Assembly (NCBI GenBank): GCA_018241865.1
Contig: JAFECY010000052.1
Coordinates: 1-19,725 of the forward strand
Direction: 5' to 3'
Source of the DNA: Pseudomonadota bacterium
GTDB taxonomy: Bacteria > Pseudomonadota > Gammaproteobacteria > Burkholderiales > Burkholderiaceae_D
DNA: 19,725 nucleotides
Each line of letters opens with the position of its first letter. The stretch's first letter is position 1. This document shows positions 6,867 to 19,725 of the stretch, piece by piece. The notes under the pieces are model-generated. The model saw nothing but the letters and a program-made list of their open reading frames with translations. It had not been told where the DNA came from and ran no database searches. A program made the translations under genes and the position numbers.

Positions 6867-7859
6867 TCACGAACCCAGCCCCTTGTACAAAAACAAGCCA
6901 TACCCTGCCAGCAGCACGAACCCGACTACGCGCGGCAGCCGACCCCAGATCATCATCGACAGGAAGTGCAGCACGCCCGCGCCGAGGATGATCCACACCC
7001 CCCACTGCAGGAAGCCGGGCACGGCGATGTTTTCCATCAGCGCGAACAGGCCGATGCACATCGGAATGCAGATGTGGCCGTCGCCCACCTGCGAGCTGAC
7101 CACGATATCCTGCCGCCCGACGTGCGCGTAGTAGATCGCGAGCAAGGCGTTGGGCACCACCATGAGCGCGCCGGAAAGCCAGCCGAGGTTGGACAGGTTG
7201 ATGTAAGGATTCTTCGCCGCCGTTACCCAGTTCACGAGGTAATCCACGCTCAGATAAATCAACCAGGCGCACAGGCCGATCGCCAGCAGATCAAAGATGA
7301 TCGACCAATGAATCGACTGATTTTTCCGCACGTTGTTCTTCAACACCTCGAACACGTGCAGCACTTGCCAGAACAGGAACAGGCCGACCAGCACCAGCCC
7401 ATCGTAGAAATCCAGCACGCCATCGCGAGCCAGCGCCCACAGTGCGCCGGTGAACAGGAACATCGCGATCAACGTCAGCAGCAGGTCGAGCCGGTACAGG
7501 CGCTGCTGGCTGTCTTTCTTCTTTTTCGCGCCCTTGCCCGACGCGGCGGCATAGCACACCGACGTCAATCCTAGAATCAAAGTCAGATTGGTGACGTTGT
7601 TGACCAAGCTGTTTTCGAGTACCAGCTTGCCGTTGCCGGCGGTGCGATGCATCACGAACACGAACACCAGATTCGCGAAGCCGGAACAGTAGGGCATGAT
7701 GAGCGTGCCCAAGATCGTGCCCTCGAAACCCTTGCTTTCGATCGCATGTAAGCGCCAGATCATCAGAAAAGAAGCGGCGATGAAACCGACCAGCAGCACC
7801 AGCGGGTTGGTCAGCCAAGGTTGGAGGGTGGTAAGAAATTCAGGCACGCGACGGTTCAA
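6867..7859 (-). CDS. CaCA-superfamily (sodium/calcium exchanger-like) membrane protein, atypical
   Basis: A 330-residue polytopic inner-membrane protein with about ten hydrophobic segments and the two alpha-repeats of the cation/Ca2+ antiporter (CaCA) superfamily. The first runs from GTILGTLIMPYCSGFAN (47-63) to LVNNVTNLTLILGL (85-98). The second runs from ALMVVPNALLA (231-241) through DIVVSSQVGDG to MCIGLFAL. In exchangers that carry Ca2+ the repeats hold acidic ligands in P-E/P-D motifs; here those positions read P-Y (56-57) and P-N (236-237). The fold is preserved but the transported ion is doubtful. A lysine-rich cytosolic loop (AKKKKD, 111-116) separates the halves. The start is taken as TTG 7859 because no ATG precedes TM1; GTG 7847 is an alternative. 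It converges on apt with a 15-bp gap. Confidence 0.75.
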   Translation of the reverse strand: MNRRVPEFLTTLQPWLTNPLVLLVGFIAASFLMIWRLHAIESKGFEGTILGTLIMPYCSGFANLVFVFVMHRTAGNGKLVLENSLVNNVTNLTLILGLTSVCYAAASGKGAKKKKDSQQRLYRLDLLLTLIAMFLFTGALWALARDGVLDFYDGLVLVGLFLFWQVLHVFEVLKNNVRKNQSIHWSIIFDLLAIGLCAWLIYLSVDYLVNWVTAAKNPYINLSNLGWLSGALMVVPNALLAIYYAHVGRQDIVVSSQVGDGHICIPMCIGLFALMENIAVPGFLQWGVWIILGAGVLHFLSMMIWGRLPRVVGFVLLAGYGLFLYKGLGS

Positions 7860-8622: not shown

Positions 8623-9156
8623 ATGGCCCTGAAGGCAACCATATTCAAAGCCGAGCTGCAGATCAGCGACATGGATAGGCATTACTACGGCGCGCACGCG
8701 CTGACCATCGCCCGCCATCCTTCCGAAACCGACGAGCGCATGATGATGCGCGTGTTTGCCTTTGCTCGGCATGCTAGTGAAGCGCTGGCGTTTGGCAAGG
8801 GTTTGAGCGCGGATGATGAACCTGATCTGTGGCAAAAGGATTTGACCGGCGCGATCGAGTTGTGGGTCGAGGTCGGCCAACCGGATGAGAAACGCATCAT
8901 GAAAGCGGCCGGCCGCGCGGCGCAGGTCATCGTCTATAGCTACAGCAGCCACAGCCGCATCTGGTGGGAACAAATCGCCGGCAAGATCGGCCGGGCGAAG
9001 AATGTCGCCGTGTATCAGATCGAGCCGGCAGCCAGCACCGCCCTGGCAAAGATGGCGCAGCGAACCATGCAACTGCAATGCACGATTCAAGATGGCGAGC
9101 TGTGGATGAACGCGGGCGATGAGTCTGTGCACATCGTGCCGCTGCTGTTGCGCTGA
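8623..9156 (+). CDS. yaeQ: YaeQ family protein
   Basis: A 177-residue cytoplasmic protein matching YaeQ along its length: MALKATIFKAELQISD at the start, then MRVFAFARHASEALAFGKGLS, PDLWQKDLTGAIELWVEVGQPDEKR and the central WWEQIAGKI. The E-x-x-x-G-Q-P-D-E-K-R segment fits the PD-(D/E)XK-like fold described for this family. The cellular role remains poorly defined; E. coli YaeQ was reported to compensate for loss of RfaH, so I do not assign a reaction. The ATG lacks a strong ribosome site. It converges with mltB with only 4 bp between the stops. The 115 bp before it hold no gene I can support. Confidence 0.93.
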   Translation: MALKATIFKAELQISDMDRHYYGAHALTIARHPSETDERMMMRVFAFARHASEALAFGKGLSADDEPDLWQKDLTGAIELWVEVGQPDEKRIMKAAGRAAQVIVYSYSSHSRIWWEQIAGKIGRAKNVAVYQIEPAASTALAKMAQRTMQLQCTIQDGELWMNAGDESVHIVPLLLR

Positions 9157-15571: not shown

Positions 15572-16492
15572 ATGTCCATCCAATGGTTCCCCGGCCACAT
15601 GAACTCCGCCCGCCGTCAGGCGGCGGAAACCATGGAAAAAGCCGACATGGTGATCGAGGTGCTGGACGCGCGCGTGCCGCAAGCCAGTTGCAATCCCATG
15701 ATCCAGCAATTGCGCGAACATCGGCAGCGCCCCTGCCTCAAAATCCTCAACAAGGCCGACCTCGCTGATCCCGTGGCGACGCAAGCCTGGCTCGATTTTT
15801 ACAACAAGCAAAAGAACGTGATCGCCGTCGCGCTGAGCTGCAAGAAGCCGGCCGATGTCGCCAAGGTGCCGGGCTTGTGCATCAAGACCGCCCCGCATCG
15901 CGGCACGGCGTTGAAACCGCTACGCATGATGATTATGGGCATACCCAACGTCGGCAAATCGACCCTGATGAATGCGCTGCTGAAAAAGAAGGTGGCCAAG
16001 GTCGGCGACGAACCGGCGGTGACCAAGACCCAGCAGCGGCTTTACCTCGGCAACAACATGGTGCTGATCGACACGCCCGGCATGTTGTGGCCGAAGATCG
16101 AGCATCCTACCGATGGTTTGATGTTGGCCGCCAGTCATGCCATCGGCAGCAATGCCTTGATCGAAGAAGAGGTCGCGACCTTCCTCGCCGATGTGCTGCT
16201 GACGCGCTATCCGCAACTGCTGAAGGCGCGCTACGGCTTTGCGCTGGAAGGCGTGGATGCCGTCGGCGTGATCGAAGGCATTGCCCAGCGTCGTGGTTTC
16301 CGATTGAAGGGCGGCGAGCCGGATTTCGAGAAGGCGTCGCATACCTTGCTGCAGGATTACCGCAGCGGCGCGCTCGGACGGATTAGTTTGGAGACGCCGG
16401 CCAGTCGGGAGGAATTGCTGGCGAGTTATCGTGCGCCGGAAAAGCTTGGGCTGGAGCTGGAAAGCGAAGACGAGTCCGGTAGCGAAGGGTAG
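15572..16492 (+). CDS. ylqF: Ribosome biogenesis GTPase YlqF/RbgA
   Basis: A 306-residue circularly permuted GTPase that acts in late assembly of the large ribosomal subunit. The permuted order is visible: G4 NKAD (60-63) precedes G1 GIPNVGKST (123-131), then the G2 Thr151 region and G3 DTPG (167-170). The N-terminal IQWFPGHMNSARR is the RbgA family signature, and the C-terminal helical ANTAR-like region follows. The ATG at 15572 starts this signature directly. TAAAAT at 15530-15535 could be its -10 box, with no clear -35. The acidic tail (ESEDESGSEG) is dispensable-looking. Directly after the stop the base composition turns AT-rich, at the edge of the cassette region. Confidence 0.95.
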   Translation: MSIQWFPGHMNSARRQAAETMEKADMVIEVLDARVPQASCNPMIQQLREHRQRPCLKILNKADLADPVATQAWLDFYNKQKNVIAVALSCKKPADVAKVPGLCIKTAPHRGTALKPLRMMIMGIPNVGKSTLMNALLKKKVAKVGDEPAVTKTQQRLYLGNNMVLIDTPGMLWPKIEHPTDGLMLAASHAIGSNALIEEEVATFLADVLLTRYPQLLKARYGFALEGVDAVGVIEGIAQRRGFRLKGGEPDFEKASHTLLQDYRSGALGRISLETPASREELLASYRAPEKLGLELESEDESGSEG

Positions 16493-16585: not shown

Positions 16586-17008
16586 CTACTGTTGGGCACT
16601 TGAGTATTCAATGCTACCAACACGAAAGGTCTTATTGATTTCAGACATGACCTCGCCCATCTCACCGGTCTTGAGGTCAAGTGCCAAGAGTTCCCATTTG
16701 GAGCGAAAAGCAAACTGAACAATGGAGACTCCAAATGGCGCGCTGACGTCTGTGGCGGACAAATCAAAGTAATGTAGATAGGTTCGGACTTGTTGCCAAG
16801 CTCCAGCTTCTGTGTCATGAGCTACCCAGTGCTGCCAAATTTCCTGCGGTTCCTTGATTGTGTTCGCAAGTACCTTGGCGTATCGCCGCTGCTCTGACGA
16901 AAGCGCTAGAACTAGACTGTTCACTTGCGCAGTCGAGAACTGGATGAGCACTCCAGCAACGTCTTTGAACTCGACTAACGACCCATGTTGTCCCAAGCTA
17001 TTCTCCAA
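16586..17008 (-). CDS. PBECR2-like nuclease-domain protein in a putative decayed gene cassette
   Basis: A 140-residue protein whose segment from about 41 resembles the PBECR2 (phage Barnase-EndoU-ColicinE5/D-RelE-like) domain found at the C-termini of Mu gpF-like phage head proteins. The features are RRYAKVLANTIKEPQEIW, a central R-T-Y-L-H-Y-F, then a hydrophobic strand VSIVQFAFRSKWELLALDL with Thr-Gly. The family call is from pattern memory. The only plausible start is TTG 17008 with a poor ribosome site; no in-frame ATG occurs until near the C-terminus. It begins 27 nt after the attC crossover point and its last codons include GCCCAAC, the exact complement of GTTGGGC at its 5' edge, as expected for a cassette's own R'' box. 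The rest of that second attC is not recognisable. No promoter is visible. Its codon use and AT content differ from the neighbouring genes. Confidence 0.6.
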   Translation of the reverse strand: MENSLGQHGSLVEFKDVAGVLIQFSTAQVNSLVLALSSEQRRYAKVLANTIKEPQEIWQHWVAHDTEAGAWQQVRTYLHYFDLSATDVSAPFGVSIVQFAFRSKWELLALDLKTGEMGEVMSEINKTFRVGSIEYSSAQQ

Positions 17009-17034
17009 CTGTGATGGCTGATACGAATGAAGGC

Positions 17035-17103
17035 GCCCAACGTTGAGTTCAGCGGTGAGCCAAAGCGCAGCTTTGGCGAGTCCGCTGGAACGTAATGTTA
17101 TGT
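17035..17103 (-). other. Integron-type attC recombination site
   Basis: Read on the minus strand, the 69-bp site starts with R'' ACATAAC and ends with R' GTTGGGC, which fits GTTRRRY exactly. Between them TTC-C-AGCGG (L'') pairs with CCGCT-GAA (L'), leaving a single unpaired C, the extrahelical base typical of attC. The apex is the perfect hairpin GCCAAAGC-TGC-GCTTTGGC. The TAA stop of the 172-residue gene lies inside R'', a usual cassette arrangement. No integrase gene or second complete attC lies in the window, so this is a lone or CALIN-type site. The structure is seen directly; function is inferred. Confidence 0.85.
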
Positions 17104-17637
17104 TTCGTCATTTTTTGGAACGACTACGAAACGCTCTGTGTTTTCGAGTACGCGCGCCCAATTCTGAGCAATTTTTTGCTGAAACTCCGCGTCATCAACA
17201 TGGCCTTGAGGAACATAGAATTTATCAAGGTCTGTTTGGGAAAGACGGAAATAACGCAGTTCTGCCGCCATGGCCGTTAGGAGTTCAAGCCAAGTGTGAT
17301 CTCTCTCCTGTCCAGGAGGCTGAGAGAGCAAGGCGTAATACTTGTGCCAAAGGTTCTTGATTGTGGGGCTGTCAGAAAATACAACGTCGATTTTGTTTAG
17401 GGCTTGCGCTAATTGCGGCGAAACTCGAAGCGATTTTCGTTCCGCCATAAGCGCAAGAAACAATTGCAACTTGGCATCTCGACGTTCTTTGCGACCTTGG
17501 AACCAAAGAGTGAATAGAACGCCTGCCAGTGGGCCAAGAAATATTGCAACGGCTGTGATCCATGTTTGGATTTTCTGGATTTCGAGTGTGGCAATAGCAA
17601 TTTGGTCAGGTGTCATGGCGTGGCCGAAGGAACATAA
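17041..17637 (-). mobile_element. Integron gene cassette carrying the 172-residue membrane protein
   Basis: The cassette limits follow from the G^TT crossover rule. Its 5' edge reads GTTATGT (minus strand, 17638 to 17632) and its own R'' is ACATAAC, the exact complement, so the excised circle would have a fully paired R''/R' arm. The 3' edge is the G of GTTGGGC at 17041. The unit is 597 bp with one gene filling nearly all of it, which is typical of cassettes. Confidence 0.75.
17098..17616 (-). CDS. Cassette-borne single-span membrane protein, DUF6680-like
   Basis: A 172-residue protein with one N-terminal membrane helix (about 15-37, AVAIFLGPLAGVLFTLWF), followed by a basic stop-transfer QGRKERRDAKLQ and a cytosolic helical domain. 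The wording K-L-Q-L-F-L-A-L-M-A-x-R, then ALNKIDVVFSDSPTIKNLWHKYY and a late F-Y-V-P-Q-G-H-V-D-D resembles DUF6680 family proteins; this is from memory. No enzymatic motif is visible. Function is unknown; many cassette genes encode such small proteins. The ATG at 17616 lies 22 nt after the cassette 5' edge, and the TAA stop is within the attC R'' box. No own promoter is evident, so expression may depend on an outside promoter. Confidence 0.75.
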   Translation of the reverse strand: MTPDQIAIATLEIQKIQTWITAVAIFLGPLAGVLFTLWFQGRKERRDAKLQLFLALMAERKSLRVSPQLAQALNKIDVVFSDSPTIKNLWHKYYALLSQPPGQERDHTWLELLTAMAAELRYFRLSQTDLDKFYVPQGHVDDAEFQQKIAQNWARVLENTERFVVVPKNDET

Positions 17638-17716
17638 CTTGATTTAATTTGCATTTTGGTAAATTAACCAGCCAGAGGAAATAAGGAAAGCTCTGGCCGA
17701 TCCTTCAGGAACCCGC

Positions 17717-17848
17717 ATGGCCATTGATTCTCGCCGGATGCGCGAAGAATATGCAGGGTATAACCAAAAGAACAAAAGCGTCAATCTCGAAAGTACAGAC
17801 CGCCCGCTTTGTGGAATGAGGATAGCAGGCATCAAGGTCAGCAACTGA
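17717..17848 (+). CDS. Possible 43-residue ORF or gene remnant upstream of brnT
   Basis: The 297 bp between the cassette and brnT hold no long gene. One plus-strand frame (ATG 17717 to TGA 17848) reads like protein, MAIDSRRMREEYAGYNQKNK and onward to a GMRIAGIKVSN end. The same frame is open back to a stop at 17660, giving an Asp-Pro-Ser-Gly-rich extension without a usual start codon. It may be the tail of a decayed gene. I do not recognise it. An AT-rich inverted repeat TTAATTT/AAATTAA (17644-17667) lies just before it. Confidence 0.2.
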   Translation: MAIDSRRMREEYAGYNQKNKSVNLESTDRPLCGMRIAGIKVSN

Positions 17849-17934: not shown

Positions 17935-18201
17935 ATGGACTACGAATTCGACCCAGCCAAAGACGAAAGCAACCTCGACAAGCATGGTTTGTCGTTGGCC
18001 GATGCCGAAGGCTTTGAGTGGGAAACAGCCGTAGTTCGTGAGGACGCACGCAAGCAGTATGCCGAGCAACGGTTGGAAGCGACCGGACTAATTGGTGACC
18101 GGCTGCATGTGATGGTCTATTGTTTGCGCGGTGATGCCGTTCGAGTCATCAGCCTTCGCAAGGCCAACCTAAGAGAGGTGACGCGTTATGTTGAAAACTA
18201 A
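17935..18201 (+). CDS. brnT: BrnT family toxin (type II toxin-antitoxin)
   Basis: An 88-residue ribonuclease toxin with a RelE-like fold that cleaves RNA and slows growth when free of BrnA. The family signature is intact: YEFDPAKDESNLDKHGLSLADA at the start, the Arg/Asp region in the middle, and VRVISLRKANLREVTRYVE at the end (the R-x-I-S-x-R-x-A motif). The start is ATG 17935; an upstream TTG in frame lies inside the promoter. There is only AAAAGAA before the ATG, which fits leaderless translation. The gene overlaps brnA by 14 bp. It lies immediately beside the cassette region and could have arrived with it, though no attC flanks it. Confidence 0.93.
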   Translation: MDYEFDPAKDESNLDKHGLSLADAEGFEWETAVVREDARKQYAEQRLEATGLIGDRLHVMVYCLRGDAVRVISLRKANLREVTRYVEN

Positions 18202-18529
18202 ATCAGGGCGTGTCGTTCACATGCCAACACCAGAAGAGGACGCTGCCATCAATGCGGACATCGCTGCTGACCCCGATGCGCGAGAGCTTGATGCGGAGTG
18301 GTTCGCAAAGGCAAAACCTGCAAGCGAGGCGCTGCCGCCTGAGATGTACGCCACGTTGGTTGCCAAGCGTCCACGCGGTCGTCCGAAGGCCGACGAAACC
18401 AAGGTGTTCACGGCGATTCGCCTAGATGCTGACTTGCTGGAAGCCTTCAAGGCTACCGGCAAAGGTTGGCAGACCCGCGTGAATGCCGCCTTGCGCCAGT
18501 TCATCGCCGAGCATCCAATTAGCCGCTAA
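18188..18529 (+). CDS. brnA: BrnA family antitoxin
   Basis: A 113-residue antitoxin that binds and neutralises BrnT and represses the operon. The C-terminal ribbon-helix-helix DNA-binding domain (about 72-110) starts with the strand KVFTAIRLDADLLEAFKATG and continues with WQTRVNAALRQFIAEH. The N-terminal half (TPEEDAAINADIAADPDARELDAEWFAKAKPA) is the toxin-binding part. The ATG at 18188 lies inside the end of brnT. AGAGAGG about 9 nt upstream is a strong ribosome site, allowing more antitoxin than toxin to be made. It converges with groEL; the shared space contains the groEL terminator. Confidence 0.92.
   Translation: MLKTKSGRVVHMPTPEEDAAINADIAADPDARELDAEWFAKAKPASEALPPEMYATLVAKRPRGRPKADETKVFTAIRLDADLLEAFKATGKGWQTRVNAALRQFIAEHPISR

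Positions 18530-18706: not shown

Positions 18707-19725
<1,019 letters not shown>

What the first reader, a model, noticed from the sequence alone, without database searches (positions are those of the whole stretch)
17035..17103. A structurally complete integron attC site in a chromosome segment without an integrase
Seen: R boxes ACATAAC and GTTGGGC, an L''/L' stem with a single extra base, and an apical 8-bp hairpin, all in a 69-bp stretch directly at the stop codon of a small gene. Known: this architecture, folded from one strand, is what integron integrases recognise. Inferred: a cassette was inserted here in trans by an integrase encoded elsewhere, or the array is a remnant.
Basis: partly seen in the sequence, partly recalled or inferred. 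Interest (0 to 1): 0.75.

Follow-up and report, generated by a model that had tools for sequence, protein, structure and literature searches.

The report
Scattered docking sites for integron cassettes
The hairpin is a genuine integron cassette site, and the cassettes in this stretch sit behind a short docking sequence found six times in the same draft bacterial genome, which suggests an integron with one integrase and many docking sites.

Summary
The attC is real. A covariance model built from 21 attC sites of related genomes scores window 17103-17035 (-) at 51.1 bits; the rest of the window stays at 8.7 or below. It ends a complete cassette (17637-17041, a DUF6680 gene). A second cassette (17040 to about 16591) has lost most of its attC. 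The 2.1 kb between ylqF and groEL is absent in 4 of 5 congeners.

The cassettes begin at the crossover point of a ~150-bp module (17638-17793, -) whose last 30 bp match the attI beside a probable, contig-cut intI on contig C306 of the same draft genome. The genome search gave six copies, each with different sequence after the crossover; attC follows in 4 (one weak), the other two lie near contig ends. Related genomes carry their own families (for example 7, 4, 3 and 2 copies); four of them show no full IntI. In 28 loci chosen for such sites, 32 of 32 attC hits lie downstream on the site's strand, one probably belonging to a decayed neighbouring integron.

Best reading: intI-less attI docking modules, served in trans by one integrase. 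Activity, promoter function and means of spread are untested.

The parts
17638..17793 (-). attI-like docking module, one of six copies found in the genome; left edge varies by pair (17782-17795), right edge is the crossover G|TT
17638..17667 (-). attI core, 3 of 30 mismatches to the attI next to the putative intI on C306
17757..17784 (-). promoter-like site TTGACG-N16-TATACC at the left edge of the module; same place in all six copies but not better than chance singly, and not reported by the strict scan
17632..17638 (-). R' GTTATGT, left end of cassette 1, exact reverse complement of its R'' ACATAAC
17041..17637 (-). complete gene cassette 1
17098..17616 (-). 172-aa DUF6680 protein gene (PF20385, E 1.3e-29)
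17035..17103 (-). attC of cassette 1 (the finding)
16591..17040 (-). cassette 2, starts TTGGGC and keeps R'' of its attC; its stop codon lies just beyond, at 16586-16588
16586..17008 (-). 140-aa gene of cassette 2 (PBECR2-like, PF18810, E 5e-8); the database entry and its two homologues begin at the equivalent of the TTG at 16996
16591..16597 (-). R'' GCCCAAC of cassette 2; no attC hit and no notable fold follows (z +0.1 and +0.4)
17935..18529 (+). BrnT/BrnA toxin-antitoxin genes, divergent from the cassettes, between module and groEL
15572..16492 (+). ylqF, left flank of the insertion
18707..19696 (-). C-terminal part of groEL, right flank (contig ends at 19725)

Best explanation
Two gene cassettes, the first complete and the second missing most of its attC, were inserted by integron recombination at a dedicated attI-derived docking module between ylqF and groEL. 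The module descends from an intI-attI intergenic region that lost intI and the LexA-type box but kept the attI core. It was multiplied to at least six places in this genome, and the copies captured different cassettes at the same nucleotide. Shown: attC, cassette borders, module copies, common crossover point, homology to attI, empty site in relatives. Inferred: a single integrase, probably the contig-cut intI beside the C306 array, acts on the copies in trans, and a promoter at the left edge of the module may express the cassettes.
For: attC. Cassette borders: ACATAAC/GTTATGT and GCCCAAC/GTTGGGC are exact reverse complements. Six module copies on C286, C278, C206 (two), C300 and C257 (12 of 12 candidates scored). 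Of 15 pairs, 14 align from -158..-145 to +2..+11 of the crossover; the 15th, the C206 pair, starts at -183 because a neighbouring gene piece is duplicated too. The only other match is attC against attC, C278 and C257. Cassettes start at G|TT in 5 of 6 and at G|CT in C257. The 8 attC hits of the genome (150 of 1274 candidates scored) lie on four contigs, all downstream of a module or the C306 attI. The module minus its core resembles the attI regions of G129 and G177 (z 2.3 to 7.4, 12 comparisons). In 28 loci 32 of 32 attC hits are on the right strand downstream of a crossover, 36% expected. C306 end: MEPETPSKKP plus CTGT-N8-ACAG next to attI. Empty ylqF/groEL junction in 4 of 5 congeners.
Against: No recombination was observed. 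No IntI over the cut-off was found in the draft (87.6% complete), and the C306 intI rests on 10 codons and context. Outside its core, the module does not resemble the C306 attI of its own genome (z -1.3 to 0.3), so this integrase may not have been its original partner. The 28 loci were picked because they hold a module or core. One of the 32 attC hits (L153:7323) sits about 0.5 kb behind an intI remnant with an attI of another type and probably belongs to that decayed integron. 9 of 32 crossovers have no attC by the model, 10 with that one; 3 of the 9 have under 620 bp of contig left. Three of the hits counted are weak: C257 16.4 bits, L150 16.6, L152 20.0. The promoter match is not better than shuffles (38-68 of 200). 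Four genomes with modules (G066, G111, G143, G588) show no full IntI, so some families may be dead. The own genome is a draft of 338 contigs.
Confidence: 0.7

Rival explanations
1. Relics of several separate complete integrons that each lost intI by decay, leaving attI and a few cassettes.
For: Decay does happen in these genomes: intI N-terminal pieces lie beside the attI of G129 (31 residues, E 1.7e-10) and, weakly, G177 (14 residues, E 0.010); G143 has a 35-residue IntI remnant (E about 1e-5) with its own other-type attI and attC, 3.3 kb from a module; G111 and G129 hold further N-terminal fragments elsewhere.
Against: No convincing IntI remnant at the intI position of the modules of G000, G066, G143 or G588 (the other matches there have E above 0.01). 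The six G000 copies end at nearly the same left position, cluster together (support 0.997) and, like the other 19 modules tested, lack an exact LexA-type box (0 of 25). Independent decays would hardly share one left edge.
Confidence: 0.19
2. Chance insertion of cassettes at non-classical attG sites by an integrase in trans.
For: attG insertion is reported (Loot et al. 2024, seen only as cited in PMC12444791 and PMC12901181); an intI appears to exist elsewhere in the genome.
Against: The insertion point is not an isolated site: the same ~150 bp precede the cassettes at six places, with attI homology.
Confidence: 0.05
3. The module is an ordinary mobile repeat (MITE- or REP-like) that happens to carry an attI core, and its spread has nothing to do with integron activity.
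For: Sharp edges and multiple copies; a Y1-type (IS200-like, perhaps RAYT-like) transposase ORF lies in the G111 array (PF01797, 23.2 bits against a cut-off of 23).
Against: The right edge is the integron crossover in the 15 G000 pairs, with different cassettes after it. Terminal repeats, target duplications and transposases near the G000 copies were not searched for.
Confidence: 0.06

Closest known systems
[quoted passage not shown]
   Same: Cassettes with attC and no intI nearby; can be mobilised in trans (PMC12444791, passages).
   Different: CALINs are defined by attC alone, and the default asks for two attC (PMC9024848, passages). Here one attC plus a cassette remnant sit behind an attI-like module present in six copies.
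Integron platform: intI, attI, Pc
   Same: attI core, crossover G|TT, cassettes in the standard orientation; possible promoter.
   Different: No intI and no exact LexA-type box at the module; several platforms per genome, with the probable intI on another contig.
attG sites (Loot et al. 2024)
   Same: Insertion of cassettes outside the intI locus.
   Different: attG is described as unlike attI and attC (PMC12901181, PMC12444791, passages); this site is attI-derived and repeated. The original paper was not held.
Delta-attI gene cassettes (PMC12901181, passages)
   Same: attI sequence outside the intI locus.
   Different: As I understand the passages, there the attI piece stands in for the attC of a cassette; here it lies upstream, as the receiving site.
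Xanthomonas CALINs at recurring loci (PMC12444791, passages)
   Same: Integrase-less arrays at a few fixed chromosomal positions.
   Different: The passages seen do not mention a shared attI-like repeat at those loci; I did not read the whole paper.

Membership tests
attC site | R'' RYYYAAC-type and R' GTTRRRY boxes | tested here: met
   R' GTTGGGC fits GTTRRRY; R'' ACATAAC fits RYNYAAC, third base A instead of Y. Box rules recalled.
attC site | L''/L' stem with extrahelical base, folding better on the bottom strand | tested here: met
   8 of 8 stem positions with one extra base; + strand folds better
attC site | Covariance-model score | tested here: met
   51.1 bits with R1; IntegronFinder's own model not available
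attC site | Recombined by IntI | not testable with these tools
   needs an assay
Gene cassette | Circular-form attC: left-end R' pairs with R'' | tested here: met
   GTTATGT and ACATAAC for cassette 1
CALIN | At least two attC sites (current default) | tested here: not met
   one attC; the second cassette keeps R'' only (threshold from PMC9024848)
Complete integron | Adjacent intI | tested here: not met
   no TIGR02249 hit on this contig
attI site | Homology to the attI next to intI | tested here: met
   core 3 of 30 mismatches to C306; wider homology to G129 and G177 but not to C306
attI site | Common crossover for different cassettes | tested here: met
   6 copies; 15 of 15 pairs stop at +2..+11
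attI site | Used by IntI as double-stranded target | not testable with these tools
   needs an assay
Pc promoter | sigma-70 promoter reading into the cassettes | tested here: inconclusive
   TTGACG-N16 site at the same place in 6 copies, 9 of 12 matches, 38-68 of 200 shuffles as good; strict scan negative
attG insertion | Receiving site unrelated to attI | tested here: not met

The most novel reading that the evidence does not exclude
A distributed integron: one SOS-type integrase and a family of attI docking modules without intI that multiply within a lineage, so that cassettes are captured at many chromosomal places at once. It arose or persisted in at least three genera of the family.
Probability: 0.5. 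Interest if true: 0.87.

Novelty: new variant of a known kind. Interest (0 to 1): 0.72.

Why it matters
Integrons are described as one platform with one attI beside one integrase, and integrase-less cassette arrays are read as degraded integrons or insertions at non-classical sites. If attI is a dispersed repeat, some such arrays would be standing docking sites. That could explain recurring positions of orphan arrays, multiply the places where cassettes can be captured, and give annotation tools a further marker (an attI repeat). It also makes a testable question of how attI itself spreads.

Tried and rejected
Rejected: chance hairpin; non-mobile conserved gene (4 of 5 congeners lack the insert); attG-only insertion. 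The DUF6680 gene is sporadic: 6 of 399 genomes of the order match at E 1e-10, this one included, none of the others in its family.

Led nowhere: plasmid and phage searches (cassettes against plasmids, module against plasmids and phages: no match); Rfam (two sub-threshold hits); relatives of the cassette-2 protein in genome contigs (none; 3 proteins in all, this one included); an early box search GTTGGGC over the genome (too short to be useful). A first attC rule that demanded R''/R' pairing missed the site, because its R' belongs to the next cassette. The strict promoter scan did not report the module promoter. The likely attI core of the congeners differs (AATTAAAG|TT in five of six intI-upstream regions), and one search found no module in G001-G005. 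In the carbonic anhydrase locus of C206, 4 of 5 congeners hold the gene and the 450 bases printed beside it show no module, but synteny beyond the gene could not be shown. L208 was fetched as a possible module and dropped, since no core was recognisable. R1 was trained on arrays chosen by a stem rule, so its covariation is partly built in; its training loci (L084, L085, L086, L088, L089, L091) are not among the module loci. In one search the crossover positions were entered by hand.

I lowered the best explanation from 0.72 to 0.70 and raised the decay rival from 0.17 to 0.19.

Papers: searches are search listings; searches are passages; no paper was read whole. No description of dispersed attI modules appeared in the listings, which cover open-licence papers only. 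One search found no paper with DUF6680.

Full report
What was checked. Both strands fold better than all 200 shuffles, the + strand best. In attC terms the gene strand is -, so + is the recombining bottom strand. The site falls at the stop codon of a 172-aa gene, with the TAA inside R''.

Scoring. I built a covariance model R1 from 21 attC sites in arrays of six genomes of the same family, without the window. R1 gives the site 51.1 bits, E 4.6e-11; its other strand scores 12.8 and the next best place in the window 8.7, filters off. A simple rule gives 0 full matches in 40 shuffles of the window.

Cassettes. Read on -, the DUF6680 gene is bounded by GTTATGT (17638-17632) and ACATAAC (17103-17097), exact reverse complements, as expected of one cassette in its circular form (principle recalled). 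The next cassette starts TTGGGC at 17040, carries a 140-aa PBECR2-like gene and ends with GCCCAAC (16597-16591), again the reverse complement of its start. The rest of its attC is missing: no model hit and no fold better than shuffles. So the window holds one whole and one truncated cassette. DUF6680 genes elsewhere can be cassettes too: of seven loci in named genomes, two (L103, L105) have a model hit directly behind the gene (36.9 and 21.4 bits).

Where the insert lies. The window is the whole contig C286. In congeners G002-G005 ylqF and groEL are convergent, with 42-121 bp between their aligned parts and a shared hairpin; in G001 about 2.6 kb of other sequence lies there. In the window 2.1 kb are inserted: cassettes, module and BrnT/BrnA.

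The module. R1 finds 8 attC in the draft genome: C306 four, C278 two, C206 one, and the window (150 of 1274 candidates scored, so more may exist; two weaker ones on C306 and C257 appear). Reading those contigs showed that the DNA just before window cassette 1 recurs before the cassettes of C278 and C206. A genome search gives the module on C286, C278, C300, C206 (two) and C257, plus a 35-bp match on C306. Of the 15 pairs of copies, 14 align from -158..-145 to the crossover (+2..+11) and nowhere else, apart from one attC-attC match between C278 and C257; identity is 76-92%. The C206 pair starts at -183 and has further matches upstream, where part of a carbonic anhydrase gene is duplicated. The bases after the crossover are TTATGT, TTAGGC, TTAGGC, TTGGGC, TTATGC and CTAGGC, with different sequence behind them. 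Six insertions at one nucleotide of one repeat is the signature of site-specific recombination. attC follows in four copies (C286, C278, C206a, and C257 with a weak 16.4-bit hit); C206b and C300 have 610 and 21 bp of contig left.

Relation to attI. On C306 the 30-bp core (3 mismatches) lies between an array and the contig end. There the other strand reads ATG GAA CCA GAA ACC CCT TCC AAA AAA CCG, with a CTGT-N8-ACAG box in between. I read that as intI start, LexA-type box and attI; the rest of the gene was not found in the assembly. Beyond the core, the modules match the attI regions of G177 and G129, which keep pieces of an intI start (z 2.3-7.4), not that of C306 (z -1.3 to 0.3). The exact box is in 0 of 25 modules, 2 of 3 intI-type attI regions and 5 of 6 congener intI upstream regions. 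The module therefore looks like an attI region that lost intI and its SOS box.

Other genomes. Of 195 genomes of the family, 6 match the module or its core, this one included (at most 4 candidates scored per genome, so copy numbers there are lower bounds). G066 has four cores on four contigs and G111 three in a row, each followed by an attC hit (two of these seven weak, 16.6 and 20.0 bits). G143 has 7 copies on 6 contigs; 10 of 43 genomes of its genus, G143 included, match the G143 module. G588, a one-contig genome, has two copies about 0.7 Mb apart. G066, G111, G143 and G588 have no IntI over the cut-off, only partial hits of the kind that control genomes also give and, in G111, two N-terminal fragments; others with modules do have IntI (G592, G586, and a broken one in G607).

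Strand and place of attC. In 28 loci (239 kb, chosen for modules) R1 finds 32 attC at E up to 2, and 32 of 32 lie on the module strand downstream of a crossover, where 36% of strand-bases lie. One of them, L153:7323, stands about 0.5 kb behind a 35-residue IntI remnant and has no module core before it, so it probably belongs to a decayed ordinary integron. Against the reading, 9 of 32 crossovers have no attC by R1 (10 with L153), 3 of them with little contig left: G143 modules on C35, C24 and C37 and those in L203 (second), L205 and L206 have none. Nearest attC within 1 kb: 20 of 32.

Amplification. Modules of one genome are on average closer to each other (means 0.71-0.95) than to those of other genomes (0.50-0.72), but G143 overlaps with its genus mates and its seven do not form one clade; the six G000 copies do (0.997), so that family multiplied in its own lineage.

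Mechanism. Most likely the integrase (C306, inferred) recombines attC of free cassettes with each module as a double-stranded attI, in trans. How the module multiplies is unknown. One copy (C206b) came with a neighbouring gene duplication. Whether it drives expression is open: a TTGACG-N16 site lies at the same place in six copies, yet 38-68 of 200 shuffles do as well and the strict scan did not report it.

Verdict. The attC is ordinary and real. The surprise is the docking module: an attI without integrase, in several copies per genome, in at least three genera. I call it a new variant of a known kind. No description appeared in my literature listings (open-licence papers only).

Noticed in passing
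L121 (G000:C306) 10752-6400, -: The array beside the putative intI carries a dihydrofolate-reductase-type gene (PF00186), an AadA-type adenylyltransferase (PF13427), a COQ7-like gene and a BrnT-type gene as cassettes.
   Followed up: partly
window 17935-18529; L122 8266-8806; L121 7855-7568; L082 9-98: BrnT-type toxin genes recur next to cassettes, modules or attI in this genome, and DNA similar to the window's BrnT region follows the attI region of G001.
   Followed up: no
L122 about 8819-8977: A second, partial copy of the 3' part of the carbonic anhydrase gene stands just before the second module on C206, pointing to a segmental duplication.
   Followed up: partly
L152 6267-6797: A Y1-type (IS200-like, perhaps RAYT-like) transposase ORF sits inside the G111 array between an attC and the third module.
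   Followed up: no
L149, L154 (modules of G066 and G143): Some modules keep an inverted repeat (such as GGTTATACC..GGTATAACC) where intI-adjacent attI regions have the LexA-type box, as if the repeat were kept but its letters changed.
   Followed up: no
L153 6736-7379: Decayed ordinary integron in G143: 35-residue IntI remnant on -, then an attI of another type (TTTGAAG|TTAGAT, by eye) and an attC at 7323-7379, 3.3 kb from a module.
   Followed up: partly
L103 6516-6582 (Chlorobiales MAG); L102 (Rheinheimera texasensis): DUF6680 genes in distant bacteria end in an attC (L103) or, by eye only, in attC-like ends (L102; no model hit), so this family of unknown function travels as a cassette.
   Followed up: partly
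G111:C1:1252455, G111:C1:673068, G129:C5:342228: N-terminal IntI fragments, two of the three with stops, at other places in genomes that lack a full IntI.
   Followed up: no
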